Part shown: in pieces, positions 11,005 to 39,054 of the stretch
Layout: the number at the start of each line of letters is the position of its first letter
How positions within the stretch are numbered: the stretch's first letter is position 1
Source: Podaxis mareebaensis
Lineage: Eukaryota; Basidiomycota; Agaricomycetes; Agaricales; Agaricaceae
DNA: 41,181 nt
NCBI GenBank assembly: GCA_018524725.1
Contig: JAEUWP010000318.1
Coordinates: 1 to 41,181, forward strand
Direction of reading: 5' to 3'
Program-made: the position numbers and the translations under genes
Notes under the pieces: model-generated
The model's database searches: none
The model's input: only the letters and a program-made list of their open reading frames with translations
Told to the model about the DNA's origin: nothing

Positions 11005-11296
11005 TGTTAGGTTGGTCCTTATCACTGGTCACCTAAGCTTTGCTAGGGGGCAGCTATCTCACTAGATGGTTCGCAGAGGTGCTAGGATCTAGCAAGAAGG
11101 ATCACAATAAGAAGGTGGCAAGGCAAGTGTCCAATTAAGTACACTCAGGAGGTCAAACATCTATAAGTCGAGAATATGACCAATAGAGCATTTACTACCA
11201 CACTGATCGTGAGCTAACATCAATCAGAAGTTAAAGGTAAACAGTAACTTGAGATTTGAGAATATATGAAGCTTGCACTTCCAGTACATGGGCAGC

Positions 11297-11304
11297 TATT
11301 TAAG
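11297..11304 (-). promoter_or_regulatory. TATA-like box of the family A LTR
   Basis: Minus-strand CTTAAATA is conserved in all four LTR copies (second near 13830, third near 22708, fourth near 37647), within a well-kept block reading GCAGCTATTTAAGC on the plus strand. It lies downstream of the LTR reading frame, where U3 core promoter sequence would be expected. Position of transcription start not determined. Confidence 0.45.
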
Positions 11305-11393
11305 CTTTACTTCTAATGTCCTAAGAAGGTAACTATGACGAAGTAATGCTACGAGTCCGAGAGTCAATAGAAGCAAAGCTATGGAGTGGAGTG

Positions 11394-11446
11394 AGACAAG
11401 AATAGAAACTAAGACAAGAATAGAAACTAGATAAGAAAGGAAACTA
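11394..11446. repeat. 18-bp tandem repeat in the LTR
   Basis: AGACAAGAATAGAAACTA occurs twice in perfect tandem, followed by a diverged third unit. The repeat is present, more or less degenerate, in the other LTR copies. Confidence 0.75.
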
Positions 11447-11547
11447 ACTAGGTAAGGAAACTGTTCAGGATGGAGTTCAGGCAAGATACAGGAATACAAG
11501 GTGAAGCATCTGTAGCAAGATAGAAAGGGAACTATTTACGAGTTATA

Positions 11548-13738
11548 TTACAAGTCCATGTCTGGATGAAGTTGTCCACTGGAGTCGGAAGAGTAAGAGT
11601 CAGGAGACGAGGCAGAACTGGGAACAGTGAAGTTCCCAATGAGGGGCAAGTCAGAGGAATCTGACTCGTGTATGATAAGCATGCTGTGGTGAGGCAATGA
11701 TGATGACAATGATGATGAGGAAATGTCTGTGGTGACATAGGGAGGTGGATAGGGAGGGGGATCCTCAGCAGGTTCAGAGTCATCAATGCCGGGGACATGG
11801 GAGTCAATGCTGCGAAGTGGAGGGAGCTGCGATCTGCAGGGAGGGATAGCCGGAGGTTCGTCAGAGTTAGGGTCAAGATGATAGACTTCTACTTCTTGAA
11901 AGTAGAGTCCGTGAGTGACTTCATATTTGATAATATGAGGGACAACCTTGGGCAGATACATCATGTAGGGATGAAGGAATATGATCAGCTCTCCAGTGTA
12001 AGGGATCATCTTCCAACCGTGGGCCCAGGCGGAGTTGAAGTTATTGTGGATGGTTTGGACGTACAACCCATCAGGACTGAAGACATGAGTGAAGGGAGCA
12101 TTCTCCCAAGCAATGCGAAGTATTTCAGTCATCATTCAATTGGTTGAGTAGAATAGTGGTCCTGGCGTTAGCCAGTCTTGTGAGAATAGTGATGCATGGC
12201 CAGGGAGGTGATGGTTGGTGAAGGCTTCGTTGCGGTAGTGTATGGGGTCTTCATTTGGTATACCTGTATCTTGAGTGGTGTGGCGGGAGGCGTTGGGAAG
12301 TCCAAGCTTGTGGACTAAAGCGTTATAGATGTGATTGCAGTGGGGAGTACTAGGAGGGTCCATAACATTATCCCCTTCGTTATTAGTGAGTTCCATTTTG
12401 CTATTATCTGAGACTGGTGTCAGGTGGGGAGTAGGTGGTCTACGATCTTCCACTTCTGATGTCGGAGAAGGGAGATTTGTGATGTCTGTCAGCTGTATGG
12501 ATTGGTTCCCATGTCTGTCCCAATGGATGAGGGAGCGAATGTGTGTAGCAGCTCTGTCGAGTATCCCATGTCATTCTCTGATTGATGCAGGGGAGGCCAA
12601 AGGTATAGGAGTTGGGGTGTGTGGTCTGCCTGCTTCTGGTGCTGATAATGTTGTCAGTGAGGGTGGAGATGGCAGCATCAATGGATTGGTGCAGTTGCGC
12701 ACTTGACAGACTTGGGCTTCTGGCACGGTGGGGAAGGTAGGGGGTTCCATTATAGTCCCTAACTCGTAGAGATGATCTGGTGACGTTACTTCCTCTGTAT
12801 TGATCAGTACACAGATACCACTGGTGTTGATTGGCCCTTTGTGGAAAAGTGCATGAAGGGTGAAGTAGTGGAGGAGGTCAGGATGGGAGTGGGTGCTGAG
12901 GAGGAGTGATAGGTCAGCTAGAAGTGCAGCAGTTGCCCAGATTGGGAATGTCTGTCGGGGAGTCAGGACGTCATTGTATTCTTTGATGTGGAGCCACATA
13001 GTGGCTTGCATCAGTAGATCATGACAATAGAGCCTCAGTTTGTGATGGAAGGCTAACATCTTGATAAGATCTAATGCTTCCCTGAATTGAAGGCATGAGA
13101 TGTGGACTTGGAGTTGGGGGAGTCCAGGAATGTAGGGCACGAGTCTCATGTAAAGTTGTATCAGGTTGTGATTGTCGATCTGCTCATTGGGGAGGTCGGG
13201 ATAATGGAGGATTCGAAAGAGAGCTAGTTCAGCTAAGTGCATTGAGTTGTAAACTGACTTTATCAATGAGAAGTTTGGTGGTAGCACTTGAGCTCTCGAT
13301 GTCGCTACGTAGTTGAGGGGAGATGTTGTGGCCAATACAAGCAAGTCGGGCCGTCTCCATTGAGTTCGAAAGTCGAATGAGCATTCTAGCAGAATGCACG
13401 ATAGTAGTAATAGTTTCCCTGTAGACATTGCAGTTCTGAACCAGAAGTGGATTCCTTTGAAGAGTGGAGTCCTGGGTGATGGAGTTAACCCAGTCCAGAG
13501 ATTCTTGGAGTTGAACGAGTTCGGAGTCAAGGTCAGATACTTCACTAGGGAGGGAAGGTAGTTCGATCAGGGATCTGGCATTGATTGGCCAGATGAATTC
13601 TCAGGTTCCGATGCGGGTTGAGTAGGCTGGGAGCAGACGGAGTGGGTGTGAGATGAGGAAGGGCGCAGCATCCTGTGCAATCATGGTCGTTGTGATGTGT
13701 TGTATGGCGAGGTGTTCTGTGATGGCATTCAAGCGTTC
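11548..13738 (-). pseudogene. third ORF of element A, copy from the truncated unit
   Basis: This second copy of the 3' ORF lacks its first 45 or so codons because of the junction near 13738. It reads in frame ...MIAQDAAPFLISHPL (no extra C here, unlike the other copy), through LDWVNSITQDSTLQRNP and KLLIDKVSLQLNALS. It then needs a +1 shift at 13229-13237 to continue as HLAELALFRILHYPDLP, and proceeds to the LTR-encoded end LHPDMDL. Stops at 12568 (RE-stop-H) and 12130 are TGA where other copies are open or plausibly had CGA. It shows which frame was ancestral in the N-terminal part. Confidence 0.75.
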
Positions 13739-13741
13739 TAC
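13735..13741. other. deletion/recombination junction between third ORF and LTR sequence
   Basis: Left of the junction the sequence matches third-ORF DNA at about 16280 (GGCATTCAAGC). Right of it the sequence matches LTR DNA at about 22616 (TACTACCACACTGATC). The two parents share only a few bases (CGTT) at the crossover, which fits microhomology-mediated deletion or template switching. Confidence 0.8.
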
Positions 13742-14914
13742 TACCACACTGATCATGAACTAACGTCAATCAGAAGTTAAAGGTGAACAATAACTTGAGA
13801 TTTGAGAATATAGGAAGCTTGCGCTTCCAGTACATGGGTGGCTATTTAAGCTTTACTTCTAATGTCCTAAGAAGGTAACTATGATGAAGTAATGCTACGA
13901 GTCTGAGAGTCAAATAGAAGCAAGGCTATGGAGCGGAGTGGGACAAGAATAGAAACTAGGACAGGAATGGAGACTAGACAAGAAAGGAAACTAACTAAGT
14001 AAGGGAAGTGTTCAAGACGGAGTTCAGGCAAGATACAGGAATACAAGGTGAAGTGTCTGTAGCGAGATAGAAAGGAAACTATTTACTAGTTATATTACAA
14101 GTCCATGTCTGGGTGAAGCTGTCCATTGGAGTCGGAGGAGTAAGAACTGGGAGATGAGGTGGAACTGGGAACGGTGAAGTTCCCAATGAAGGGTGAGTCA
14201 GAGGAATCTGACTCGTGGATGATAAGCATGCTGCAGTGAGGTGATGACGATGATGATGATGATGAGGAAATGTCTGCAGTGACGTAGGGAGGTGGATAGG
14301 GAGGAGGATCCTCAGTGGGTTCTGAGTCATCAATACCTGGAATGTTGGAGTTGATGCTGTGAAGCAGAGGGAGCTGCAATCTGTGGGGAGGGATGGCTGG
14401 AGGTTCGTCGGAGTTAGGGTTGAGACGATAGACTTCTACTTCTCGAAAGTAGAGTCCGCAAGTGACTTCGTATTTGATAATATGAGGGACAACCTCTGGC
14501 GGATACATCATATATGGATGAAGGAATACGATCAGCTCTCCAGCATAGGGGATCATCTTCCAACCATGTGCCCAGGCGGAGTTGAAGTTATTGTGGATGG
14601 TTTGGACATACAACCCATCGGGATCGAAGATGTGAGTGAAGGGAGCATTCTCCCAGGCGATGCGAAGTATTTTGGTCATCATATGGTCAGTCGAGTAGAA
14701 CAGTGGGCCAGGCATTGGCCAGTCTTGTGAGAATAAGGATGCATGACCAGGGAGGCAATGATTAGCGAAGGCTTCATTGCGATAGTGGACGGGGTCTTCA
14801 TCTGGCATACAGGTATCCTGAGTGGTGTGGTGGGAGGCGTTTGGAAGTCCAAGCTCATGGACTAGAGCGTTGTAGATGCAGTTGCAGCGTGGTGTACTAG
14901 AAGGGTTCATAACA
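13738..14914 (-). repeat. family A LTR, copy 2 (lacks about 180 bp)
   Basis: Matches LTR copy 1 from TACTACCACACTG to the ...GTTCATAACA end. The missing part corresponds to 11005 to about 11184 of copy 1, the downstream (U5) end in element orientation. It carries an uninterrupted 816-nt LTR frame (14910-14095). Confidence 0.9.
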
Positions 14915-16427
14915 TTATCCCCTTTGTTATTAGCGAGTTCCATCTCACTATTATTTGAGACTGGTGTTGGGTGGGGAGTAGGTGGTCTACGATCTTCCGC
15001 TTCTGATGTTGGAGAAGGGAGATTCATGATGTCCGTCAGCTGTATGGATTGGTTCCTGTGTCTGTCCCAATGGACAAGGGAGCAAATGTGCATGGCAGCT
15101 CTGTCGAGTATCCTGTGTCGTTCTCTGATTGATGCAGGGGAGGCCGAAGGTATAGGAGTTGGGGTGCATGGTCTGCCTGCTTCTGGTGCTGATGATGTTG
15201 TCGGTGAGGGCAGAGATGGCGGCATCAATGGATTGGTGCAATTGCACACTTGATGGACTTGGGCTTCTGGCATGGCGGGGAAGGTAGTGGGTTCCATTAT
15301 AGTCCCTAGCTCATAGAGATGATCTGGTGATGTTACTTCCTCAGTATCGATCAGTACATGGATACTGCTGGTGTTGATTGGTCCTTTGTGGAAAAGTGTG
15401 TGAAGGGTGAAGTAGTGGAGGAGGTTGGGGTGGGAGTGGGTGCCGAGGAGGAGTGATAGGTCGGCTAGGAGTGCAGTGGTTGCCCAGATTGGGAATGTCT
15501 GTCAGGGAGTCAGGATGTCATTGTACTCTTTGATGTGGAGCCACATAGTGGCTTGCATCAGTAGATCATGACAGTAGAGCCTTGGTTCACGATGGAAGGC
15601 TAGCATCTTGATAAGATCTAATGCTTCCCTGAATTGAAGGCATGAGATGTGGACTTGGAGTTGGGGAAGTCCGGGAATGTAAGGCACGAGTCTCATGTAG
15701 AGTTGTATCAGGTTGTGATTGTCGATCTGTTTGTTGAGGAGGTTGGGATAATGGAGGATTCAAAAGAGAGCTAGTTCAGCTAAGTGCGTTGAGTTGTAAA
15801 CTGACTTTATCAATGAGAAGTTTGGTGGTAGCGCTTGAGCTCTCGATGTTGCTACATAGTTGAGGGGAGATGTTGTGGCCAATACAAGCAAGTTGGGCCG
15901 TCTCCATTGAGTTCAAAAGTCAAATGAGCATTCTAGCAGAATGCACGATAGTAGTAATAGTTTCCCTGTAGATGTTGCAGTTCTGAACCAGAAGTGGATT
16001 CCTTTGAAGAGTGGAGTCCTGGGTGATGGAGTTAACCCAGTCCAGAGATTCTTGGAGTTGAACGAGTTTGGAGTCAAGGTCAGATACTTCACTAGGGAGG
16101 GAAGGTAGTTCAATCAGGGATCCAGCGTTGATTGGCCAGATGAATTCTCGGGTTCCGATGTGGGTTGAGTAGGCTGGGAGCGGGTGGAGTGGGTGCGAGA
16201 TGAGGAAGGGGTGCAGCATCCTGCGCAATCATGGTCATTGTGATGTGTTGTATGGTGAGGTGTTCTGTGATGGCATTCAAGCATTCTTGGAAGGTGGTGG
16301 GTGGTTCTGTGAGGGATGGGATGCTGTTAGAATTATGGCCAGTGCTTGTAGTAGAGTTGGGAGGAATTGAAGAAGTTTGCTGGGCTTCAGTTTGAATGGT
16401 GGCTTGCTGGTTGTTGGTGGTTGACAT
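14095..16427 (-). CDS. third ORF of element A, overlapping PPT and LTR, function unknown
   Basis: ATG at 16427 (MSTTNNQQATIQTEAQQTSS) lies 9 nt after the tandem TGA-TAA stop of pol, in the same frame. The roughly 775-codon product has a Gln/Thr/Pro-rich start and a helical middle (LDWVNSITQDSTLQRNP; LIQLYMRLVPYIPGLPQLQV; HISCLQFREALDLIKML). The frame crosses the polypurine tract, which encodes NNKGDN, and enters the LTR with VMNPSSTP. The LTR part contains WENAPFTHIFDPDGLYV, AWAHGWKMIPYAGE, FLHPYMMYPPEVV, EDPPPYPPPYV, a poly-Ser run and the end LHPDMDL. This copy has one inserted C near 16215 and two internal TGAs, plus the +1 shift at 15776-15784 shared with the other copy. There is no signal peptide or clear membrane helix, so it does not look like an Env. 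No known domain recognised. Confidence 0.75.
14915..14931 (-). promoter_or_regulatory. polypurine tract of element A
   Basis: Minus-strand AATAACAAAGGGGATAA directly precedes the LTR end TGTTATGAACC. The same tract with CG in place of CA (AACGAAGGGG) precedes LTR copy 1 at 12368-12384. It is embedded in the coding frame of the third ORF. Confidence 0.8.
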
Positions 16428-16439
16428 CTCCAGTAGTTA

Positions 16440-19400
16440 TCAAAGCTTGTTCTTCCTTTTATAAGCATTAAGGATTTGCTGTGCATTGGAGAATGCAGAC
16501 TGCAGTTCCCATGTATTTTCAGAGTGTGGATAGCCAGTCCACTTGACTAGGAATTCGAGGTGGTTGCACAGTTTTCAATGATTTAGGATGGCTTCTACTT
16601 CATAATGTTCTTCGTCATTGTGCAGTTCTGGTGTGGGTCATGGGTAGTGTTTGCCATATAGGTTATTCTCAGTTACTGGAGTCAGTAAGGTGGCATGGAA
16701 CACGGGGTGAATTCTCCATGTTTTGGGTAACTTTAGTTCAAAGTTGACTGCAGATATCTTCTTGACGATTTCGAATGGTCCTTCGTGTTTTGGAGTGAGT
16801 TTTCTTGATTTGACTTGCAATGGAAGATTGCGAGTGTCTAACCATACTAGGTCTCCTGTGGAGTAGGTGGGGAGTCAATAGTTGGCTGTGCATCTTGCCA
16901 TGATTTGACAGGCATGGTTATGGGCTTGAATAGCATGGTGGCGGGCTTCCATTAATTGATCCATGCAGTTTTCTGCTGATGGATTGTTTGTTGGTTCCAT
17001 TTCTGTTGGGAACACTTTTGGGGTGTAGCCATAAAGTAATTGGAATGGAGTTTCAGAGTGTCCAGCATGGGGACAGTTGTTGTGGCAGAATTCATAGATT
17101 GGAAGGTACTTGCTCCATTCATTCAGGTCGCTTGAAGTGGCAATGGTGAGGTAGGTTTCGATTTCTTGGTTGAAGCATTCGGTGGATCCATCGGTTTGCG
17201 GATGGTAAGCTGTAGAGTAGGTGGGCTTGATGTCGAGGAGTTTGTACAGTTCTCGCATTGCTTTGGATGTGAATTGGGGGTCTTGATCTGAGATGACCTT
17301 ATCGGGAAGGCCATATTGCAAAAATAGATGGTTGACCAAAATAGAAGCAATGACTTGGCTGTCGGTGGTCTTCATAGTAGGGGCTAAAATTATCCCCTTC
17401 ATTAGGCCATGGTCCACTATGGCCAAAATAGAATCATATTCGTGGGATGGTGGTAGATCTGTAATAAGATCCATAGAGATTTGTGAAAAGGGTCATGTTG
17501 ATTGAGATGCTGGGATCAGTTGATAGGGTGGCTTGTCTGGTTGTCTAATGATCTTGTGCTGTTGGCAGGTTGGGCAGCCTTTAACGTATTCAGTGACATA
17601 GTCTTTCATGGCTGGCCAGTAAACGTATTCAGCGAGTTTGCATAGTGTTTTGGCTACTCCAGGGTGTCCTGCAGTCTGATGATTGTGTACTTGTTGGAGT
17701 AATCTGCGGCACAGTGATGGTTCATTAGGAATCAGGATTCAATTCCCATGTGTAGGTAACTCTTGATCCAGTGTGTCATCATCATTGGGGTCTATCATTT
17801 CTTGGTGCTTCTTGATGACTCGTTTATCATCTTCTGTAATGATGGCAATCATTGATTGATCAAATACAGTAATGTCTTGGTTTTCTGGTTCTTGGGGTGC
17901 GTAGTTGGGTCGTCTTGATAGTGCATCTGCTGGTCCATTCTTTCGACTAGGGATATGTTTGATCTTGAGATTTGGTTGAAATCATTGCATAAATTGTACC
18001 CAGTGAACTTGTCACTTGTTGAGGGTTTGGGGTTCCTTGTTACATGATAGGTTTTCATGGTCACTCCAGATGATGATTTCATGGGGTGATCCTTTGAGGT
18101 AGTGGCACCATGTGCGCAGTGTGATAATAATAGCTAACCATTCGAGTTCTGAGCAATGGTAGTTGCATTCTGTTGGAGTAAAGGCTTTGGAATGGAAGGC
18201 TATTGGGCGACGAATGCCATTTTTGTCTTTTTGGTAGAGTACAGCTCCTGCTGCATATTGCAATGCATCAGTTTCAATTTCAAAGGGTTTTGATGGATCA
18301 GGTGCGATAAGAATAGGTCGGTCTTCGAATTTCCTTTTGAGTTTGTCAAAGGCTTGTTGATGCTCGGGTTTCCATTCAAACTTGACATTCTTGGACATTA
18401 AGGCATTAAGAGGTGCTGCATGTTTGGAGTAATTTCAGATAAATTGTCAGTAGAAGTTGCAGAATCCAATGAATTTTCAGACATCTCGAGTTGTCCTCGG
18501 TGTAGGCCAATTCTTGATTCCTTTGAGTTTGGTGGTGTCCATTTCAATTGAGGTGGGAGTGACTACTGCTCCTAGGTATTCGATGCATTGCTTTTCAAAT
18601 TTGCACTTCTCAGGTTTGAGGTATAGGTCGTGTTTGCATAGAATGTTGAGTACTTCTCAAGTGATTTGTCATAGTTCTTCTCGGGTTTTGGCATGAATGA
18701 GAATGTTGTCCATGTAGATGAGTACTTGTCCTCTTCAAATAAGGTGAGCGAAGATATGATCCATCATAGATTGAAATGTTGCAGGGCTGTTGCACATTCC
18801 AAAGAACATGACTGTCAGTTCAAATAAACCTCTTGGGGTTTTGAAGGCTCCTTTCCACTGGTCACCTTCATGGATGCAGATGTTGTTATATCCAGCTTGG
18901 ACGTCGAACTTTGTAAACCATTTTGATCCTTTGAGTTTATTGAGTAGTGATGATATGAGTGGTATTGGGTACGTGTTCTTGATTGTATGCATATTGAGGT
19001 ATCAATAGTCTTGGCATGGTCGTAGTTTGCCATCTTTCTTTCCTACAAAGAAGAAAGGTGATGCCATAGGTGATTCGGAAGGATGAATATATCCTTTAGT
19101 GAGATTTTCGTCAATGAACTTGTCGAGTTCTTGCATTTCGATAGGCGATAGTCAGTAAGGTTTGAATGATTTGGGTTCGAATCAATCCTTGAGTTCGATT
19201 TTGTGATCCCAAGGTCTGCTTGGTGGAAATCGTGATGCTTTCTTCTTGGAAAATATGTCGAGGTAATCATGAAATTCCTTTGGAACGACTTTTTGTGGGT
19301 CAGATTCTTTCTTCAGATCTCCATACTGTTGCGCAATGGTTTGCGAAGCATTGGCTTTGAAGTTAATTTCGAGGAACGATTCGGGTTCCAAGGTGATGTG

Positions 19401-19964
19401 GTTGAGTTCATCAATTTCGTCTTCCATGGTATGAAGGAGTTCTTGATAAATGCATCCTGGGTCATCATTTCTCCAGGTGAGGGTTTGGTTTCTCCAGTCG
19501 ATGTCAGGATTGTGTTCCATGAGCCATGGGGCTCCAAGAATGATCTTGGGTTTGCCGAGTTTCATAACTCATGTCATAACAGGTGTGATCTGGTTATCAA
19601 TCTCAATATTAAGTATACATTCTTCTGTAGTTGTTCCGGCTTTGTTAATTGATCCGTTGGCATTACGAACTTCAATTGGTTTCAGTAAGGGGCATGTTTT
19701 GAGGTTCCATTGACTAATAAGACTGTCATCGATAAAGTTTCCTCCTGCTCCTGAGTTTAGCAGGGTAAGTGTGTTGATTGGTTGTCATTGGTTGAGATGT
19801 ATTCACACTGGAAGATATAGGATCTTGTTATGTTGCTGGGCAGTTACTTGGTTAATAGCTTGAATCGGTTTTTGATAGGTAGGTGGGTTTCTCGGTCTGG
19901 GGTATCCATTGAATGAATATTTGGAATCGCTGCTCGCGATTTGCGAGTTATCAGAACTAGACAT
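16440..19964 (-). pseudogene. element A pol: protease, RT, RNase H, integrase, chromodomain
   Basis: Domains in order on the minus strand. Protease: LLNSGAGGNFIDD near 19750 (catalytic D is N) and ILGAPWLMEHNPDIDW near 19520. [34 protein letters not shown] near 19040, and the catalytic box YMDN near 18705 instead of YMDD. RNase H: IETDALQYAAGAVLYQKD near 18260 and SDHENLSC. Integrase: CPTCQQHK near 17560, then catalytic D in MDLITDLP, D in ISDQDPQFTS and E in TECFNQEIETYL. GPY-like module: GPFEIVKKISAVNFELKLP near 16760. Chromodomain: LEFLVKWTGYPHSENTWEL near 16540. About nineteen in-frame stops are all TGA, many at conserved Arg positions such as DY-R-YLN. The product would copy and integrate the element, with the chromodomain steering it to heterochromatin. 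It cannot be functional as it stands. Confidence 0.95.
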
Positions 19965-21445
19965 GATGCTGGCTAGTCCCTTCTGGTAAAATCCTTTCCT
20001 TTCCCTTTTGAGTCTTCTTCATCACTTGACTCTTCTTCGATGTTGTTGAGTCTGGATCGTCTATGTTTTCAGAATCGTCTTCCATGTTGGTTTCGGGAAT
20101 AGGAGGCTCGATTCTTTGACTTCTGCTTGTTGAGCAGGCATGATCGTGCATAGTGCTTGCCAGTTTTGCAGATGAAGCATAATCCTTTGCTTCTGAGTTC
20201 ACAGAGTTCTTGGGGTAGGAGATTGTTGAGTTCCGATTTGACATGTGCTTCGATGATTTGATTAACTTGTTCACTTGTGTAGTAGTCGTCGTCGGATGAT
20301 ATTTCTGAAGAGTCTTCGTCTGATGACTGTTCAGATTCGCTATCTGTTCCGTCAATATTATTGAGCTTGTTCGTGAGGATGTTGTCAATGTCCATGGGAC
20401 CATATCCTGGGGGGTTACGAGTTGTTTGAGATGGTGTATACACTCGGAAGTTGTAGCTTTTGCTTGAAATACGAGATTTCGAATGCTTCTTGTGATGGGA
20501 GTTTGAGTAGTGTCGGTACAAATTTCTCAGGCAATCAGTAAACGATTGAAAGTGTGCCAGTCCTCCTGTGCAGCGGGCTGCTGTGTAGACAGCTTCAGGG
20601 TTGTTTTCTGCTGGGCTTTGGTTAATGACGCCTTTGCAGTAATACGGGTCCAGTCCTTTAAGGAATAGTGTGACTTTGGTCTCATTATGAGAGATGCCTG
20701 CTGAGGTGCATAGGCTCTTGAACTGGTTGATATATTCTTCAATTGGTCTGCCATTCTGTTTGAGGTGTGTGAGGCAGTCGATGCTGACAACAGTGGTAGA
20801 GGCTTGTTTAAATGAGTTGTCCAACTCAGTGAAGAACTGTGATAAGGTTTGCATCATATTGAAGGTGTTTCTGGTGGTATGGGAGGTGACATAGGCTTCC
20901 TTCCATGTTGTGGCCGGTCCTTGCATGTTGAGGAGGGTGAACATGATCTTAGCAGAGTTGGAGGAGAGATTGGTCGGTTGGCATGCATAGTAAATTTGTA
21001 AGTCTCTCTTCCATCGTGGGTAGTCAGAGGGGTCTCCATAGAAAGGCTCAGGCTTCTTGACCTTTGGGTCTCGGGTGTTTGACATGGTGGAATGTACTGA
21101 CTGAGGTGATTGGGCTCTGGAGGGTGTATCGGGATATGGGGTAGTCGGATTGTATGGGTCTGGTCTGTGTGTGTTGATGAGGTTATTGAGGATGTCTTCT
21201 CATTCGGTAGGTGAGGTAGTTCTGATGTATAACTGTTGCTCTGGTGTGAATGAGTCATACCAGGCTTGTTGTGCTGATGTGAGGATGAGCGGGTGGAGTG
21301 TTGGTTCTTCAGGTGATTCTCCTGGGGATTCAGACTGTTGGTTACTTCCTGAGTGGTATGAGTGTTCTGACTTGGTGTCGATGTGCTTGGGATCTCCTCT
21401 GTGTTGAAGGAGGGGGTTTGGCTGGGTAGATTGTTCTGGTGTCAT
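19957..21445 (-). pseudogene. element A gag with one CCHC knuckle
   Basis: ATG at 21445 (MTPEQSTQPNP), a TGA at about 21200 (TE-stop-ED), then a long capsid frame with KKPEPFYGDPSDYPRWKRD, NMQGPATTWKEAYV and RPIEEYINQFKSLC. Next come an acidic Ser-rich linker (SESEQSSDEDSSEISSDDD), a zinc knuckle CFICKTGKHYARSC near 20165 and a basic end. It binds and packages the element RNA. The frame ends at a TGA near 20070, after which an acidic Lys-rich tail is readable in the same frame. Pol follows in another frame, so a frameshift or similar device presumably joined them. Confidence 0.85.
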
Positions 21446-21768
21446 AGCTGCTTGGCTAATTTGCTCAGAGCACTCTCCAAGAGAAGCTTGTCTGATAAGT
21501 CCTGCTGTGGCACTGGTTGAGGGTTTGATGGGGGGAGGAGTGTTGTGAAAGGATTCGGTGCATTGGATGGGCAGGGGTGGTGAATACGGGGTTTGCTCCG
21601 GTGAGCGGGTACGAAGCCAAAGTGAGGGATCTGAGGGTGGGGTCGGTTGGTGTTGTTGAGGTTGTTTGGATTTTCTAGATCATGAGGAGGAAGATTGGTC
21701 GGGATCGGGCTCAGTCTGAGCTCGTTGCTTTCCTTTTCCTGAGAACAGGGTGGCATTGAAGAATCCAT
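21442..21768 (-). CDS. short leader ORF overlapping gag start by ATGA
   Basis: MDSSMPPCSQEKESNELRLS, Pro/Asn-rich, then an amphipathic helix-like end LSDKLLLESALSKLAKQL. Its TGA overlaps the ATG of the downstream gag frame (ATGA at 21442-21445). It may be the true N-terminus of Gag displaced by a frameshift, or a separate small protein with coupled reinitiation. No domain recognised. Confidence 0.4.
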   Translation of the reverse strand: MDSSMPPCSQEKESNELRLSPIPTNLPPHDLENPNNLNNTNRPHPQIPHFGFVPAHRSKPRIHHPCPSNAPNPFTTLLPPSNPQPVPQQDLSDKLLLESALSKLAKQL

Positions 21769-22430
21769 GGTGAAGGTGTCACGGGGTGGTTGCTGACTAG
21801 CTTGGATGAAATCCTATCTTGATTTCGAGTATCTCCAGGATTTCTCATGGTACGGCTTTAATCTTTCTCGAATCCAGTTGTGCTTCTGGATGGTGGACGA
21901 TTTCTGTAGTGTGCAAAATCCACACTTGTGCTAGGGGTCTATCTTTCCTTTCTGGTTACCCTTCAATCAAATACTCCTTCTTTGTACATGGCTTAGAGTT
22001 ATTCCATGGCACGGCTATTGTCTCCCACAGCCAGTCTAGTGCTTGATGTGGGTGCTTTTCTCCTTTACTTGTTCTTCAAGATAATGGCCAGTTATCCAGG
22101 CTTTCAAGGATTGGCTCTGCCCTTTGTTATCGGTCTGGAGTAGGTCGCAGTTGTTTTCCAGGTTCACCAAGGTTCCTACAATCTGTCTAAATTGCTTTAG
22201 ACAGAGCGGTTTCCTCTCTCCAATCTGCGGGCCTTTAAGATCTAGGTTGCTATCCTGATCACCGTGTTCAGGCATATCTCCTGATGTAGATTTGTGGTCT
22301 ACTCGCAGATCCAGTCTAGTGTTGGCTAGGTCTGTGATGGGATTAGGGCCCGTGTCACCCTAGAGATATCATGCATTGTCTAGTCACTTACAATGGACAC
22401 GAGGGTCGCTGAGGGAAGCTTCCTATATAA
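21769..22430 (-). other. 5' leader of element A
   Basis: Untranslated leader between the LTR and gag, containing a 79-codon frame at 22036-22275 (MPEHGDQDSNLDLKGPQIGE...) that could be an upstream ORF. The bases next to the LTR on the minus strand are TTATATAGGAAGCTTCCC. This lacks the TGG that begins tRNA-complementary primer sites, and contains the palindrome GGAAGCTTCC. Either priming is unconventional or the site is mutated. Confidence 0.5.
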
Positions 22431-23779
22431 TGTTAGGTTGGTCCTTATCACCAGTTGCCTAAGCTTTGCTAGGGGGCAGCTATCTCACTAGATGGTTCAC
22501 AGAGGCGCTAGGATCTAGCAAGAAGGATCACAATAAGAAGGTGGCAAGGCAAGTGTCCAGTTAAGTACACTCAGGAGGTCGAATGTCTATAAGTTGAGAG
22601 TATGACCAATAGAACGTTTACTACCACACTGATCATGAGAAGTTAAAGGTGAACAATAACTTGAGATTTGAGAATATAGGAAGCTTGCACTTCCAGTACA
22701 TGGGCAGCTATTTAAGCTTTACTTCTAATGTCCTAAGAAGGTAACTATGACAAAGTAATGCTACAAGTCTGAGAGTCAATAGAAGTGAAGCTATGGAGTG
22801 GAGTGAGACAAGAATAGAAACTAAGATGAGAATAGAAACTAGATAAGAAAGGAAACTAACTAGGTAAGGAAACTGTTCAGGATGGAGTTCAGGCAAGATA
22901 CAGGAATACAAGGTGAAGCATCTGTAGCAAGATAGAAAGGGAACTATTTACGAGTTATATTACAAGTCCATGTCTGGATGAAGTTGTCCACTGGAGTCGG
23001 AAGAGTAAGAGTCAGGAGACGAGGCAGAACTGGGAACAGTGAAGTTCCCGATGAGGGGCGAGTCAGAGGAATCTGACTCATGTATGATAAGCATGCTGTG
23101 GTGAGGCAATGATGATGACGATGATGATGAGGAAATGTCTGCGGTGACATAGGGAGGTGGATAAGGAGGGGGATCCTCAGTGGGTTCAGAGTCATTGATG
23201 CCAGGGACGTTGGAGTCAACACTGCGAAGTGGAGGGAGCTGCAATCTGTGGGGAGGGATAGCCAGAGGTTTGTTGGAGTTAGGGTCGAGACAATAGACTT
23301 CTACTTCTTGAAAGTAGAGTCTGCGAGCAACTTCATATTTGATAATATGAGGGACGACCTCGGGTGGATACATCATGTAGGGATGAAGGAATACAATCGG
23401 CTCTCCAGCGTAAGGGATCATCTTCCAACTGTGGGCCCAGGCGGAGTTGAAGTTATTGTGGATGGTTTGGACGTACAACCCATCAGGATCGAAGACATGA
23501 GTGAAGGGAGCATTCTCCCAAGTGATGCAAAGTATTTCAGTCATCATTCAATCAGTCAAGTAGAATAGTGGTCCTGGCATTAGCCAGTCTTGTGAGAATA
23601 GTGATGCATGGCTGGGGAGGCGATGGTTGGCAAAGGCTTCATTGTGGTAGTGTATGGGGTCTTCATTTAGTATACCCATATCTTGAGTGGTGTGGTGGGA
23701 GGCGTTGGGAAGTCCAAGCTCATGGACTAAAGCATTATAGATGCAATTGTGGCAGGGAGTACTAGGAGGGTTCATAACA
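22431..23779 (-). repeat. family A LTR, copy 3 (5' LTR, 1349 bp)
   Basis: Begins TGTTAGG at the left and ends GTTCATAACA at the right, followed by target duplication TTTAA. It has a 14-16 bp deletion near 22639 relative to copy 1. It contains its own 816-nt frame from ATG 23775 to stop 22960. The frame upstream of it is fused by chance to the interrupted pol of element B. Confidence 0.9.
22960..23775 (-). CDS. LTR-encoded C-terminal part of the third ORF (5' LTR copy)
   Basis: Starts at the ATG seven bases into the LTR (MNPPSTPCHNC...) and runs 272 codons to the conserved LHPDMDL end, with a single TGA near 23541. It retains DPPPYPPPYV. In a 5' LTR this segment lies upstream of the promoter, so translation here is not expected. 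The copy is maintained by reverse transcription from the 3' LTR. Confidence 0.6.
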
Positions 23780-23784
23780 TTTAA
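23780..23784. repeat. target site duplication TTTAA (right copy)
   Basis: Matches 11000-11004 and directly follows the CATAACA end of LTR copy 3. Confidence 0.9.
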
Positions 23785-26700
23785 TGTGTCCAAGTTAGTG
23801 TCTAAAAGACTTCTGACTTTCTCATTGAACTTGATCTTTTGTCTTGCAAGGTATGGTATTACTCTGAATGCTGCTACCTTATTTTGCCAGACTGATCCAT
23901 CCATTTCCACTAGAATATAAGCTCCTCTGCTTAACCATTTTATGACTACCATAGGCCCTATATACCTTGGTTTTATTTTTTGGTCCATGGACATCTCAAT
24001 TGCAGAGTTCTTTACCAAGACCAGATTCCCAGGTCCTAGTTTGAACTCTTTGATCTTATGCTTATAATCCTCCTCTAATTGTAATGCTCATGTTAACTTT
24101 TCTTCAGTCACCCTCATGTGCATTTCTTCTACATGCATTACATGTTTTGCTAGAGCCTGCACCCTTAATCTGATAAGTTCACTAGTGGATGTCAACTTGT
24201 TTGGGTATCTGACCAGCCACATTGCTTCAATTACATCTAAAGGAATAGTTGGATGTGCCCCTGTTACCATAAAATATGGTGAACAACCTGTTCCTTTTCT
24301 GATAGTGATACAATCCACCCACATTACATGATGTAGCAACCAATACCATTTCTTTATATCACCATTTGTTGCTTTGAACAACATCTGGAGAAGATCCCAA
24401 TGGGGTCTTTTGATGGTACCATTAGCTTGCAAGTTATATGGCAAAATGGTGACACCTTTAATTCCATATTTTTCTGATAACCACCTCACTGCTTTTTTAA
24501 ACAGGGATCCATTATCAGTAACTACTTTAACTAGCAAGCCCCACTGACAAATGATATCTTCAAATAGCCATTGACCAATGGACTTTGCATTCTCTTTTCT
24601 TAGCACTCTTGCCTCCATCCACAAGGATAACCCACAACATCCATGTATGATATAACTACATCCATTTGACAGTGGAGTAATATGTACTGTATCTGTGTGT
24701 AATACTTGGAATATAGATGGTGTATGTGTTACCACTGGAGGGAGCTCTAGTGCCATTTTCTGTCTAATTTGACAAAGGTGGCATGATTTGACATACCACA
24801 CAATGTTGCCTTCCATCTCTAGCCACCAAAACCTTTGGGCAATCATCCTGTTTGTCACATAGGCACCTCTATGTCCCAATTTATTGTGACATTCTTTCAT
24901 GATGCTCACACAATTTTCTGGATCTACCACTAGTTGTGGAAAACCAGATCCAGTTGTTTTTCTGTACAGTCATCTATCCTTATCTAGCCAGAAGTGTGAG
25001 GCCACTCTAATGAACTTTGCCTATTCTGTAGTCATCCTCATGAGGTCTGATTTCTTAGGTTCAGTAGCTAACCAGTCCCTAATTTTGTGAAGTTGTTCAT
25101 CCTGCATCTTGGCCATCTGAGTTCTTCTGTTTTTATCATAAGGTTCTTCACTAGCTGCTATGTCCTCTAAGTCTTGTTCTTCTTGTGATGGTACTTCATC
25201 TAAGAATTGTCTAATGAGTATAGGACAGCTGGGATCTCTTGTGAGTATCCTTTGCTGCTTAATTTCTCACTTAGTATTTTCCTTAGTCTCTCTTAAGGCC
25301 ATCTGGAATTCTGAATTATCTTTGAAGAACTTCTGAAAGAAACCAGTCCTATTGTCAATTTCATCAAAGAAGTCTTCTAAGTCTAGGGGGTCCTTATTGC
25401 AAGGATCATTCTTCACCAGTTTGAAGTCTTCTCTATCATCTTCTGAACCATCATCAAACTTTTGCTCCACAGGGTCTCCTGGATACCAGGGGTATCATGA
25501 AAGTCTGTTTGGACCAAAAGTCTTTCCTTTCTTATGTACCAGGGTGAAATGGAAGTTGGTCCTAATGTAGTCTACCCAGTGATTAATTGTCATATTAGGC
25601 AGTTTACCAGGATTATTCAACATTCTGAACAAATACTTAGCATTGGTTTCAATTACCAGGTCTCTACACCCTCTTAATAAATATGCTTCTTCTTCTAGTG
25701 CTATTCTCAATCTGCACAATTCTTGCTTAGGTTGTGAATACCACTGCTGTCTGGGATCCATTAATATGGAACTGAACTTCACATAGTGAATCTGCTTAGG
25801 GTCTATATCATTGCATTGATAGATATAGTACCCTACTGCTCTCCATGAGGAGTCTACTGCCATTACAATAGGCTGTTCACTAGGAAACCTAGGATTCCTA
25901 GTATGAAAGCATTCTTGTATCTTATCTTTTAATTGCTGTTGCATGAGCTGCTGTTCTGGTCTCCATTCAAATGGTATGTTGGGTCTGCACACATTATACA
26001 AAGGAGCTGTGATGGTTACAAAGTGAGGAATATGATTCCTGCATTGAACCACTGTACCTAAGAAAGCTCTTACATCAGTAGGGTTTTCACAAGGCCCCCA
26101 TCTAATGATCTTTCCTATGGTATCCACTGTAGGTTTTCTTCCTTGGTAGGAACAGTCAAACCTGACAATTGTAATATGATCAGCACAAATTGTAGTCTTG
26201 GGTCCTGAAAAGGTTCCTCCCACATACTTCATTCTCTGTAAGATTCTATTGACTGTTTGCATATGCTCCCATACAAAGCAATGAATCCCTGGGTTCTCAC
26301 ATAGAACTTCATAACTTCTGTCAGGTTGTTTGTAGTGAGATAGAGGTCCTCTAATAGGTACATTGTCTATGTAGGGCATAGTGTATTCTGGTATTTCATC
26401 TTGCAGGATGTAAGTTACATCATCATAGAAGATTGGAATGGAATTAGTCCAACCCATTGGTAGGGTGACCAACCTCAATGCTCCAAAGGGTGTCTGGAAG
26501 GTGGTCAAGTCTTGTGACAGTTCTGCTAGCTGTTACTCATCATAACTGACATATAAATCTAATACACCATTACATGCACAACCAGCAAAGTGCATTGCCA
26601 ATTCTTCTGTAGCTGGAGGCAAACCTGAGTGTGCTATAGTTACTTGATTAAGCAGCTCCAGACTATGAACCAATCTAAGGCTTTTTCCATCTTTCTTAAC

Positions 26701-34300: not shown

Positions 34301-34900
34301 CCACCAAGGTTTGGATTTGGTGCAAATGCAGACAAGTTTGGCATTGGACTGCCATTCTTGAGAGATGATGTAGGACATGCTATTGGCATAAGAGTTGACA
34401 TCGTCTCCTGAGTTGAAGACAGGTGGGATGGCTTGGAGGCAGACACCTATGGAGTATAAGAACATGGCTTCTTCTTCCAAATCATGAGGGATGGTAAACT
34501 TTTCAATGAAAGGTTTGAATGGGGAGGGTGTGGAGAGAGAGGAGAGGAGGGGGCAGTGGTCCAAATTGAGTTGCCAGTCATCCTGGATGGTATGAACTGG
34601 ACTTGGTTGTAGGGGGTCATCTATTGAGAAAATGAGATCAATGATGGAGGGGTGTTTGGTGTTGTCAAATGGTATGTGAATATACTTAGCCTCTGTTGGG
34701 GTAGAGAGTGTAAGGCTGATAGAATTCATGATGTCAATGAGTAAGTCAGTGCGAGCAGAGTGGTGGATGATGTGGGGATCCCATTCAGGGGAATGGGAAT
34801 TGAAGTCTCCTCCCACACAGATAACATTCTTGGGGAAGAAGTGGATGCAGGATTCTAGAAGGTGAGTGAAGAATCATCAGAGGGTTCCAAATAACAATTG
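31399..34900 (-). pseudogene. LINE ORF2: partial endonuclease, RT, RNase H, zinc motif
   Basis: The endonuclease end has GGDFNSHSPEWDP at 34816 and later SIIDLIFS and LDHCPLLSSL. RT begins near 34000 with STPGPDHLSWAHIKHL, then FKHSTSIIIPKPNK, a core LIVLLNTLSKLIEKMIS and LHPLQFGG; the catalytic box is SFIDDGLIVVQS near 33240. RNase H at about 32350-31930 has LLVATDGSVPSNPS, TSDSELYAL and FMDSISSAKLL, giving the D-E-D acidic residues. The C-terminal motif is CPCGEPLETHDHILDDYPCF near 31600. The frame is broken near 34017 (TGA), 33476 and 32700-32550. The protein nicks target DNA and reverse transcribes its RNA. This copy is dead. Confidence 0.9.
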
Positions 34901-37354: not shown

Positions 37355-38722
37355 TGTTAGGTAGGTCCTTATCACCAGTCACCTAAGCTTTGCTAGGGGG
37401 CAGCTATCTCACTAGATGGTTCACAGAGGCGCTAGGATCTAGCAAGAAGGATCATGGTAAGTAGGTGGTGAGGCAAGTGTCCAGTTAAGTACACTCAGGA
37501 GGTCGAATGCTTATCAGTCGAGAGTATGACCAACAAGACATTTACTACCACACTGATCATGAGCTAATGTCAATCAAAAGTTAAAGATGAACAATAACTT
37601 GAGATTTGAGAATATAGGAAGCTTGCGCTTCCAGTACATGAGCAGCTATTTAAGCTTTACTTCTAAGGTCCAATTCCGGTAACTATGACAAAGTAGTGCT
37701 ATGAGTCTGAGAGTCAATAGAAGTGTAACTACAGAGCAGAGCAAGACTAGAATAGAACTAGACAAGAATAGGAATAGAGACAAGAAAGGAAGTTAACTAA
37801 CTAAGGAAATCATACAAGATAGAGTTCAGGCAGGATACAGGAATACAATGTGAAATGTCTGTAGCAAGATAGAAGAGAAGCTATTTACTGGTTATATTAC
37901 AAGTCCATATCGGGGTGGAGGTGTCCGTTAGAAGAGTCGGAAGAGTAAGAGTCGGGAGACGAGGTGGAACTAGGAATGGGGAAGTTGCCTGTTGAAGGCA
38001 ATGAGTCAGGAGAATCTTCATGGAGGAAGATGAGGCTGTGGTGCGGGGACAATGATGATGATGACGATACATCGCCAGTGACATATGGTGGTGGATATGG
38101 AGGAGGATCGCCAATGGGTTCCTCTGGGTTTGACTCGTCGATACCTGGAACGTTGGAGTCAACACTGCAGAGGGGCAGAAGCTGAGTACAATGGGGAGGG
38201 ATGGCTGGAGGTTCGTCAGAGTTAGGATTGACATGGTAGACTTCTACTTCTCAAAAGTAGAATCTGTGGGCGACTTCGTACTTGATGATGTGCAGGACCA
38301 CTTCAGGTGGATACATCATGTAGGGGTGAAGGAATACAATGGGTTCTCCAGTGTAGGGGATCATCTTCCAACCATGGGCCCAGGCGGAGTTGAAGTTGTT
38401 GTGAATTGTCTGAACATATAACCCATTGGGATCGAAGACGTGAGTGAAGGGAGCATTCTCCCAAGTGATGCATAGTATCTCCGTCATCATATGGTCGGTC
38501 TCATAGAAGAGTGGTCCAGGTGTTGGCCAATCTTCGGAGAATAGGGAGGCGTGGCCAGGGAGGCGATGATTGGCAAGGGCTTCATTGCGATAGCAGGTTG
38601 GATCTTTGGCTGATATACCCATATCTTGCGTGGTAGAGTGAGAGGCATTGGGGAGTCCAAGCTCGTGGACTAATGCATGATAAATAATGTCATGGCGGGA
38701 GGCACCAGGCTGGTTCATAACA
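37355..38722 (-). mobile_element. solo LTR of family A (1368 bp), with perfect 5-bp duplication
   Basis: TGTTAGGTAGG at the left and GGTTCATAACA at the right, flanked by GCTTC. It is the most diverged of the four LTR copies, yet it ends at precisely the same bases, which fixes the LTR boundaries of the family. Solo LTRs arise by recombination between the two LTRs of a full element. It lies in element B gag, between QFEPSGSC and the STSTQPQNSMQP region. Confidence 0.95.
37897..38718 (-). CDS. LTR-encoded frame in the solo LTR
   Basis: ATG at 38718 (MNQPGASRHDIIYHALVHEL) to the TAA at 37897, 822 nt, two codons longer than the 816-nt frame of the other copies. Indels relative to them are in-frame (NPEEPIGD versus EPTED; SNGH versus SGQ). 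It is open except for one TGA (FYF-stop-EVEV, where other copies have FR or FQ). DPPPYPPPYV and LHPDMDL are conserved. It is evidence that this segment of the LTR was under coding constraint. Confidence 0.65.
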
Positions 38723-39012
38723 GCTTCCTGATGGTTCAAATTGCCCAGGAATAGTTTGCCTAGTTGATGGGTTAACTTCAAATGAAATACTTGAATCAGA
38801 TAAGGAATCACGTTCTAATTTGATTTCTGAATCTACTGACAAAGGGACACTAGATGTGGCTTGCAACCTTTGTAGTGGATGTCCCAAAGGGTATTCTGGA
38901 TTGTCTGAGCTGGGTGATAAACCTGCTCTCTGTGAATTTTGCATTTGCCTGCCTTGTTCCAGCTCAGCAACTTGCTTTTCATCTAGTAAGTCTGTCACCT
39001 TCCTTTTCCAGT
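38723..39012 (-). pseudogene. element B gag N-terminal segment
   Basis: Minus-strand WKRKVTDLLDEKQVAELEQG, then a Ser/Asp-rich linker to QFEPSGSC, interrupted on one side by the solo LTR and on the other by the ORF1-only LINE. CpG-poor like the rest of B. Assignment to B rests on reading-frame continuity across the solo LTR and on composition. Confidence 0.6.
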
Positions 39013-39054
39013 AACCACCACCATCTCCCTCTGTGGTCAGTTATTCGTAGTACT

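What the first reader, a model, noticed from the sequence alone, without database searches (positions are those of the whole stretch)
14095..16427. Chromovirus with a third ORF that runs through the polypurine tract into the LTR
Element A has a third ORF of about 775 codons starting 9 nt after the pol stop, in the same frame. It continues across the PPT (coding NNKGDN) and for about 272 codons inside the LTR. The LTR boundaries are fixed independently by two perfect target duplications (TTTAA, GCTTC) and TGTTA/TAACA ends. A 3' ORF in U3 recalls the positions of lentiviral nef and MMTV sag. Fungal Ty3/gypsy elements normally have only gag and pol. No domain, signal peptide or membrane helix is visible, so it is not an obvious Env.
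Basis: partly seen in the sequence, partly recalled or inferred. Interest (0 to 1): 0.88.

Follow-up and report, generated by a model that had tools for sequence, protein, structure and literature searches.

The report
Overlapping retrotransposon genes reaching the LTR
This jumping element of a fungus carries, behind its usual genes, two extra genes written over one another in different reading frames, and the second runs on into the element's end repeat; mutation patterns in many copies indicate that both were kept working while the element was mobile.

Summary
The 3' coding region is real, but it is not one 775-codon ORF. In 30 copies (of 46 places) it resolves into two genes. ORF3 (window 16427-14987, minus strand, about 480 codons) starts 9 nt after the pol stop and ends at a stop shared by 30/30 copies. 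ORF4, in the +1 frame, starts at an AUG inside ORF3, overlaps it by about 1.2 kb, crosses the polypurine tract and continues 273 codons into the LTR (to 14095). Between copies the LTR-coded part has dN/dS 0.16 (0.10 without CpG changes); the two LTRs of one insertion differ evenly over codon positions. TAA/TAG in the ORF3 frame are depleted 20-fold against synonymous shuffles (30/30 copies), but not beyond ORF3. Two further chromovirus families show the same overlap; in one, ORF4 also enters the LTR, by 70 codons. No known family matches; sister ORF3s carry zinc knuckles. The window copy is broken and its "element A" is composite. Position recalls nef/sag; homology was not detected. New variant of a known kind. 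Expression route and function are inferred.

The parts
11005..23779 (-). Composite Ty3/gypsy chromovirus insertion (element A)
   Evidence: 5' LTR 22431-23779 and 3' LTR 11005-12367 with TGTTA/TAACA ends and a 5-bp duplication TTTAA on both sides; gag and pol domains
22431..23779 (-). 5' LTR (1349 bp); carries a copy of the ORF4 3' part
20069..21199 (-). gag reading frame (Retrotrans_gag, Ty3_capsid)
   Evidence: Pfam E=6.7e-13 and 3.3e-9
16437..18434 (-). end of pol: RNase H (18012-18434), integrase (16875-17492), chromodomain region; pol stop at 16439-16437; interrupted in this copy
   Evidence: Pfam (rve 2.7e-7, just below its cut-off); chromodomain found in a family copy; stop position
14987..16427 (-). 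ORF3, about 480 codons; broken in this copy by a length change and TGA stops
   Evidence: ORF3 frame without a stop in 80% or more of 30 copies over 482 codons, then TAG in 30/30 copies; TAA/TAG depletion 30/30 rows
14095..16276 (-). ORF4, +1 frame to ORF3; candidate starts 16276 (ATG in 30/30 copies) and 16219 (29/30, A at -3); about 710-730 codons
   Evidence: open from 15501 to 14095 in this copy (468 codons)
14987..16219 (-). region read in both frames (overlap of ORF3 and ORF4)
14915..14925 (-). polypurine tract AAAGGGGATAA, coding inside ORF4
14095..14914 (-). LTR (U3) part of ORF4, 273 codons
   Evidence: dN/dS 0.16 (0.10 without CpG-type changes), third/other rate ratio 5.34, p=0.00005; even after the stop
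14284..14307 (-). tandem PPxY motif (PPPYPPPY) in the LTR-coded tail
   Evidence: 27 of 27 copies that reach it hold at least one PPxY, 17 of them both
13732..14914 (-). shortened LTR directly behind the PPT, of another lineage than the flanking LTRs
11187..13739 (-). partial second copy of ORF3/ORF4/LTR, 90% identical to 13732-16287
11005..12367 (-). 3' LTR (partner of the 5' LTR)
37355..38722 (-). solo LTR of the same family with duplication GCTTC

Best explanation
The element belongs to a chromovirus family that carries two accessory genes behind pol. SHOWN by sequence evidence: ORF3 (about 480 codons) and ORF4 (about 710 codons, +1 frame) are separate protein-coding frames overlapping by about 1.2 kb; ORF4 ends in U3, so its last 273 codons are part of the LTR. 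Both were under selection while the family was mobile, and copies decayed neutrally, almost only at CpG, after insertion. FOLLOWS from the known retroelement cycle: U3 of both LTRs of a new copy is made from the 3' copy, so selection on the 3' gene keeps the sequence in both LTRs, and the PPT has to serve as primer and as code. INFERRED: ORF3 is translated from an AUG closely behind the pol stop (by reinitiation, or from a shorter mRNA), and ORF4 by leaky scanning to the next AUG shared by most copies, which lies in the ORF4 frame in all three families examined. INFERRED, weak: the products are non-envelope accessory proteins of the particle or RNP. ORF3 would be a nucleic-acid partner (CCHC knuckles in both sister families, none seen in this one); the LTR-coded tail of ORF4 would dock a WW-domain ubiquitin ligase (Rsp5/Nedd4 type) through its PPxY motifs.
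For: Copies: 46 places by DNA, 30 taken as loci; 91 ORF4 places by protein. Selection on ORF4: at non-CpG sites, changes per site at codon positions 1/2/3 are 0.57/0.13/3.25 and 0.43/0.15/3.21 in two LTR windows, and 2.15/2.52/2.73 behind the stop. Permutation p=0.00005 for ORF4 inside and outside the LTR, 0.25 behind it. Mean pairwise dN/dS: LTR part 0.16, internal 0.26, pol end 0.18. Neutral control: the LTR pair of element A differs at 2/2/1 non-CpG and 24/18/22 CpG-type sites by codon position, against 8/4/36 non-CpG between lineages. Overlap: no stop in 80% or more of copies over 482 ORF3 codons, against 22 in the third frame there and 9 in the ORF3 frame over the next 299 codons. TAA+TAG in the ORF3 frame 0.40 per copy against 8.01 shuffled, 30 of 30 rows p<0.01; control beyond ORF3 9.55 against 10.69, 0 of 29. 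Constraint alternates: ORF4 frame at 1380-1529 (p=0.00005), ORF3 frame at 1560-1649 (p=0.004; windows picked after a scan). Sister families: the same test 11 of 11 and 16 of 16 rows. In family C ORF4 crosses the PPT and ends 70 codons inside the LTR: variable non-CpG sites by codon position 8/47, 3/53, 22/48 from the LTR border to the stop, 15/34, 17/38, 11/32 behind it; the stop is TGA in 8 of 8 copies with letters there (recount). Starts. PPxY.
Against: No RNA or protein data. Rows are related by descent, so row counts are not independent trials. The ORF3 frame shows no amino-acid constraint over part of its length (dN/dS 0.82-0.99 over 1025-1888) and no periodicity at 374-484 (p=0.75) or over 659-1003 as a whole (p=0.81). 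ORF3-only dN/dS is 0.44, no lower than a wrong-frame control (0.45-0.50). In one search, which also counted TGA, the stretch 660-1004 of family A gave 0 of 29 rows. ORF4 shows no constraint between its AUGs and about position 656, so the true start is open. AUGs are not depleted before the ORF4 start in family A. The PPxY and zinc-knuckle roles rest on motifs, and no knuckle is seen in family A. Family A proteins match neither sister family.
Confidence: 0.9

Rival explanations
1. One fusion protein: ribosomes start at the ORF3 AUG and move into the ORF4 frame by +1 frameshift or by splicing near reference position 660-700, so the product is one protein of about 775 residues.
For: In family A the visible constraint switches from the ORF3 to the ORF4 frame between 656 and 692, and ORF4 upstream of 656 is unconstrained.
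Against: The ORF3 frame stays depleted of TAA/TAG up to 1808, is the constrained frame again at 1560-1649 and ends at a stop shared by 30/30 copies. In family C the ORF4 constraint begins at an AUG (433, 15 of 16 copies). The candidate junction region is strongly conserved in the 16 copies printed, unlike an intron.
Confidence: 0.15
2. Only ORF4 is a gene; the ORF3 frame is open by composition.
For: The ORF3 frame lacks amino-acid constraint over several hundred bases, and ORF3-only dN/dS is no lower than a wrong-frame control.
Against: The synonymous shuffle keeps protein and codon usage and predicts 8 TAA/TAG against 0.4 seen; the same relative frame beyond ORF3 is not depleted. ORF3-frame periodicity at 485-658 (p=0.0007) and 1560-1649 (p=0.004). 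Sister ORF3s carry zf-CCHC (B 6.1e-5; C 0.0036, below Pfam's cut-off).
Confidence: 0.06
3. A captured host gene fragment carried along as passenger, without use to the element.
For: No match in the domain libraries used, so an unknown host origin cannot be excluded. The setting of the 91 ORF4 places was not checked one by one.
Against: Selection across the copies with a neutral control; the same architecture in three families.
Confidence: 0.03
4. The product is a highly diverged envelope-like protein.
For: It lies where env lies; ORF4 has a 19-residue stretch with hydropathy mean above 1.6 in 13 of 30 copies.
Against: The median maximum is 1.57 for ORF4 and 1.02 for ORF3, one weak candidate helix at most; overlapping frames and a tail in U3 are unlike env. 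No signal-peptide program was at hand and the structure predictions were too poor to help (pLDDT 32.5 and 34.9).
Confidence: 0.06

Closest known systems
Fungal chromoviruses (chromodomain Ty3/gypsy; Metaviridae)
   Same: gag, pol with RNase H, integrase, chromodomain; LTRs, PPT, 5-bp target duplication
   Different: two further genes behind pol, overprinted, one ending in U3; PMC2864245 (section 5 read) describes the majority of its fungal full-length elements as having one or two ORFs, with an 'add. ORF' of unknown function in a figure legend
Retroviral U3 genes (lentiviral nef, MMTV sag; foamy virus accessory genes) - recalled, not tested
   Same: a 3' gene that crosses the PPT and ends in U3
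   Different: fungal chromovirus; much longer protein; overlaps a second long gene; no recognised env; no dedicated comparison with nef or sag was made, no match in the libraries searched
Bdelloid rotifer LTR retrotransposons with additional ORFs (PMC5408684; listing, abstract start and passages seen)
   Same: additional ORF behind pol
   Different: the words 'overlap' and 'into the LTR' do not occur in its main text; animal hosts, no chromodomain
dUTPase-carrying basidiomycete LTR elements (PMC2864245 section 5 read; Novikova and Blinov 2008 seen only as a reference)
   Same: basidiomycete elements with an additional function
   Different: the dUTPase is part of Pol; the ORF3/ORF4 pieces have no Pfam match

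Membership tests
Chromovirus (Ty3/gypsy) | pol order RNase H - integrase - chromodomain | tested here: met
   family copy: RT_RNaseH 9.7e-34, H2C2 1.1e-21, rve 2.2e-5 (below its cut-off), Chromo 2.8e-14
Chromovirus (Ty3/gypsy) | gag of Ty3 type, LTRs with TG..CA ends, short target duplication | tested here: met
Retrovirus with env | env-like third ORF with signal peptide and membrane helix | tested here: inconclusive
   hydropathy maximum above 1.6 in 13 of 30 copies for ORF4 and 1 of 30 for ORF3; no signal-peptide program at hand
nef/sag-type U3 gene (as analogy) | coding frame crosses the PPT and ends in U3 under selection | tested here: met
nef/sag (as homologue) | sequence similarity to nef or sag | tested here: inconclusive
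   no Pfam match up to E=1 for the ORF3/ORF4 pieces, no PDB match for the ORF4 profile up to E=1; no dedicated comparison was made
Overprinted gene pair | stop depletion in the second frame beyond what protein and codon usage of the first explain | tested here: met
   TAA+TAG: A 30/30, B 11/11, C 16/16 rows p<0.01; controls 0/29 and 0/30. The version counting TGA too: A 0/29 on a short stretch, B 10/11 and 9/11, C 13/16 and 14/16
Overprinted gene pair | both products made | not testable with these tools
   no RNA or protein data held

The most novel reading that the evidence does not exclude
A clade of fungal chromoviruses has evolved, independently of retroviruses, a complex-retrovirus-like 3' gene set: two long genes overprinted for about 1.2 kb and read from neighbouring AUGs, the second extending through the PPT into U3 (273 codons in one family, 70 in another) and, in this family, ending in a PPxY tail that recruits a host ubiquitin ligase. 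LTR length in these families would then be set partly by a protein gene.
Probability: 0.5. Interest if true: 0.88.

Novelty: new variant of a known kind. Interest (0 to 1): 0.77.

Why it matters
Fungal LTR retrotransposons are usually treated as gag-pol only. A selected gene inside the LTR means that an LTR can be coding sequence, that annotation which cuts ORFs at LTR borders will miss it, and that U3-overlapping accessory genes arose outside retroviruses. Long overprinting in three families gives a natural test bed for how new proteins arise in a second frame. Because each insertion carries two LTR copies of the same age, it also gives a clean internal comparison of selected and neutral change.

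Tried and rejected
Single-ORF reading: rejected. My first codon-position analysis mixed 9 wrongly oriented copies among 30; found, replaced. My interim view that ORF3 ends after about 213 codons (note) was dropped when the interior stops proved to be CGA/TGA/CAA sites and the shared stop was found at 1811. My note gives the family C pol stop as 217; that is wrong: the pol frame stops at 224 in 10 of 16 copies and at 239 in 16 of 16. Intron in the overlap: not favoured, the region is too conserved. Structure prediction from window sequences alone: pLDDT 32.5 and 34.9, so no fold search was run. PDB: nothing up to E=1 for the ORF4 profile and one piece, four ribosomal S10 chains at E 0.77-0.91 for another piece, taken as chance; NCBIfam: nothing. 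Homology of family A ORFs with sister ORFs: none found. AUG depletion before the ORF4 start as support for leaky scanning: not shown (A 2.7 per copy against 1.31 expected, many at decayed CpG; C 0.75 against 0.86; B 0 against 0.07). Rfam: nothing in the window at gathering scores. Literature: ten searches (two of them returned no paper, and several lists were capped at 12-20 rows of up to 508 papers). None of the titles and abstract starts listed describes an overprinted pair or a U3 gene in a fungal LTR element. Opened: PMC2864245 (section 5 and passages), PMC5408684 and PMC2774666 (passages), PMC3411680 (word search, no occurrence of the five terms). The rest were seen as listings only.
Full report
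SETTING. The window is contig C31 of a 36.95-Mb assembly in 429 contigs. Hydrophobin matches at 19 places, none in 14 control genomes, and a best named pol relative in Agaricus bisporus at 53% identity point to a basidiomycete, probably an agaricomycete; the species is not known.

THE ELEMENT. On the minus strand a chromovirus lies between LTRs 22431-23779 and 11005-12367, with TTAAA on both sides. Gag is recognised (Retrotrans_gag 6.7e-13, Ty3_capsid 3.3e-9) and so are RNase H and integrase. A copy of the same family shows the chromodomain (2.8e-14). The insertion is composite: ORF4 ends inside a shortened LTR (14914-13732), then follows a partial second copy of the 3' region (11187-13739), which ends in the true 3' LTR. 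In the ORF part of the LTR the two flanking LTRs differ at 5 non-CpG sites, but from the shortened LTR at 48 and 47. So the LTR of the finding belongs to another lineage than the LTRs whose target duplication was used to fix its borders, although its 5' border itself is right.

WHAT THE READING FRAMES ARE. The window copy does not hold one frame. I took 30 of the 46 places found by DNA, oriented and aligned them, and counted changes per site by parsimony, setting aside sites where two or more copies hold CpG. Reference positions below are those of copy L015; position 374 corresponds to window 16427. The pol stop is at 362. ORF3 starts at ATG 374 (27 of 28 copies with letters), and its frame has no stop in 80% or more of copies until TAG at 1811 (30/30; window 14987). 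Inside, 30 stop sites are of CpG type (CGA or CAA in at least two other copies); 7 further sites are not, the six printed being in one copy each. ORF4 is in the +1 frame, behind a stop shared by 30/30 copies at 522, with ATG at 525 (30/30) and 582 (29/30, A at -3), and runs to 2714 (window 14095). The longest uninterrupted ORF4 frames among the 30 copies have 729 and 713 codons. Of 111 stop codons in the ORF4 frame of the 30 copies (525-2709), 94 are TGA (my sum over).

SELECTION. In the LTR-coded part the third codon position changes 5.3 times faster than the others (p=0.00005), in internal ORF4 4.6 times (p=0.00005), at the end of pol 4.7 times (p=0.00005), behind the ORF4 stop 1.2 times (p=0.25). 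Mean pairwise dN/dS: LTR part 0.16, internal ORF4 0.26, pol end 0.18; without CpG-type changes 0.10, 0.13, 0.07. The decisive control is the LTR pair of one insertion: 2, 2 and 1 non-CpG differences at the three codon positions and 24, 18 and 22 CpG-type ones, while lineages differ at 8, 4 and 36. Selection therefore acted while elements moved, and copies then decayed without regard to frame.

OVERPRINTING. Shuffling synonymous codons of ORF4 in each copy predicts 8.01 TAA or TAG in the ORF3 frame (582-1808); 0.40 are seen, and all 30 rows have p<0.01. Beyond the end of ORF3 the same frame has 9.55 against 10.69 (0 of 29 rows; one row dropped for gaps), and the third frame has 14.67 against 11.77 (0 of 30 rows). 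From ORF3 towards ORF4 the numbers are 0.79 against 6.02 (26 of 29 rows, one dropped). An earlier form of the test that also counted TGA, on the short stretch 660-1004, gave 0 of 29 rows; CpG decay adds TGA there. Constraint alternates along the overlap: ORF3 frame at 485-658 (p=0.0007), ORF4 frame at 659-1003 (p=0.00005) and 1380-1529 (p=0.00005), ORF3 frame at 1560-1649 (p=0.004); the last windows were picked after a scan. ORF4 third positions change at 0.73 per site within 659-1003 and at 1.78 within 1008-1886 (68/93 and 414/232). Against this, the ORF3 frame shows no amino-acid constraint over 1025-1888 as a whole (0.82-0.99), and ORF3 upstream of the overlap has dN/dS 0.44, as a wrong-frame control does (0.45-0.50). 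I read ORF3 as a protein with conserved parts and a loose linker. Copies share ancestry, so row counts overstate independence.

SISTER FAMILIES. An integrase search listed 150 places: 45 of this family at 79-100% identity (the window's own included), then further families. Three sister loci from two families were read. Family B (11 of the 41 places used) and family C (16 of the 40 places used) both have a zinc-knuckle ORF3 (zf-CCHC 6.1e-5 in B; 0.0036 and below Pfam's cut-off in C) and a +1 ORF4 overlapping it by about 1.25 kb. TAA/TAG depletion is 11/11 and 16/16 rows. In family C the ORF4 constraint begins near an AUG present in 15 of 16 copies. ORF4 of family C crosses the PPT (read EGDHVMN) and ends 70 codons inside an LTR of 818 bp. 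Variable non-CpG sites by codon position, in 9 sequences, are 8/47, 3/53, 22/48 from the LTR border to the stop and 15/34, 17/38, 11/32 behind it (one search had cut the windows about 20 bases early). A site just before the LTR reads TGA in 8, CGA in 5 and CAA in 3 of 16 copies, again CpG-type. In family B the coding region, with a further zinc-knuckle ORF5 (0.0011, below cut-off), ends before the 665-bp LTR. By profile comparison ORF4 of B and C are related (probability 85, E=6e-6) and so are their ORF3 knuckles (96, E=1.3e-9); part of the ORF4 similarity could be induced by the overlap. Family A matches neither.

HOW IT PROBABLY WORKS. In all three families the ORF3 AUG follows the pol stop: 9 nt in A, 14 in B, and in C 16 nt behind the stop that 16 of 16 copies share (31 behind an earlier one in 10 of 16). 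The next AUG shared by most copies lies in the ORF4 frame (A 525, B 103, C 433). In B and C pol and ORF3 are in different frames, so readthrough of the pol stop cannot be general. I infer reinitiation or a short 3' mRNA for ORF3 and leaky scanning for ORF4. Because U3 is copied from the 3' end into both LTRs, one functional 3' gene preserves the sequence of both. The LTR-coded tail carries a tandem PPxY in this family: 27 of 27 copies that reach it keep at least one, 17 both. PPxY binds WW domains of Nedd4/Rsp5 ligases, as in retroviral late domains (recalled). With the zinc knuckles of sister ORF3s this suggests RNP or particle accessory proteins; I put about 0.3 on that functional guess, 0.5 on leaky scanning, and above 0.9 on two selected genes with ORF4 in U3. 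An envelope-like role is unlikely but not excluded: ORF4 has a stretch with hydropathy above 1.6 in 13 of 30 copies; I raised that rival from 0.04 to 0.06 for this reason.

NOVELTY. Additional ORFs in fungal elements are known in outline (PMC2864245, section 5 read). PMC2774666 (passages read) says a clade of fungal chromoviruses carries additional genes, citing two references, one of them a dUTPase paper. Ten searches of the held library gave no listed paper on an overprinted pair or a U3 gene in fungal LTR elements; subscription journals are largely missing and the lists were capped. I file it as a new variant of a known kind: chromovirus membership is met, and the 3' gene arrangement I found nowhere described.

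Noticed in passing
11187-16287 (window): Internal tandem duplication of the 3' region inside one insertion, the two units' LTRs belonging to different lineages (48 and 47 non-CpG differences); suggests template switching or recombination between lineages.
   Followed up: partly
11005-12367 and 22431-23779 (window): Post-insertion decay is almost only CpG-type: 64 of 69 differences of the LTR pair in the ORF part, which suggests cytosine methylation of the copies.
   Followed up: partly
LTR-coded part of ORF4 in 30 copies: Silent sites diverge more than twice as fast in the LTR part (dS 0.467) as in internal ORF4 (0.204) or pol end (0.191), CpG-type changes excluded; U3 lineages may be older than the internal ones; unexplained.
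   Followed up: no
L039:2096-3178: Family B carries a third 3' ORF with CCHC-like knuckles just before the LTR, with change biased to third positions.
   Followed up: partly
23548-26508 (window): Element A appears inserted into the pol of another Ty3/gypsy element (integrase H2C2 1e-14, RNase H 5.4e-7).
   Followed up: no
34019-34816 (window): Endonuclease of a non-LTR retrotransposon type (Exo_endo_phos_2, 8.8e-8).
   Followed up: no
38854-40197 (window): A 447-codon ORF on the + strand beside the solo LTR, without Pfam match at E<=0.01.
   Followed up: no
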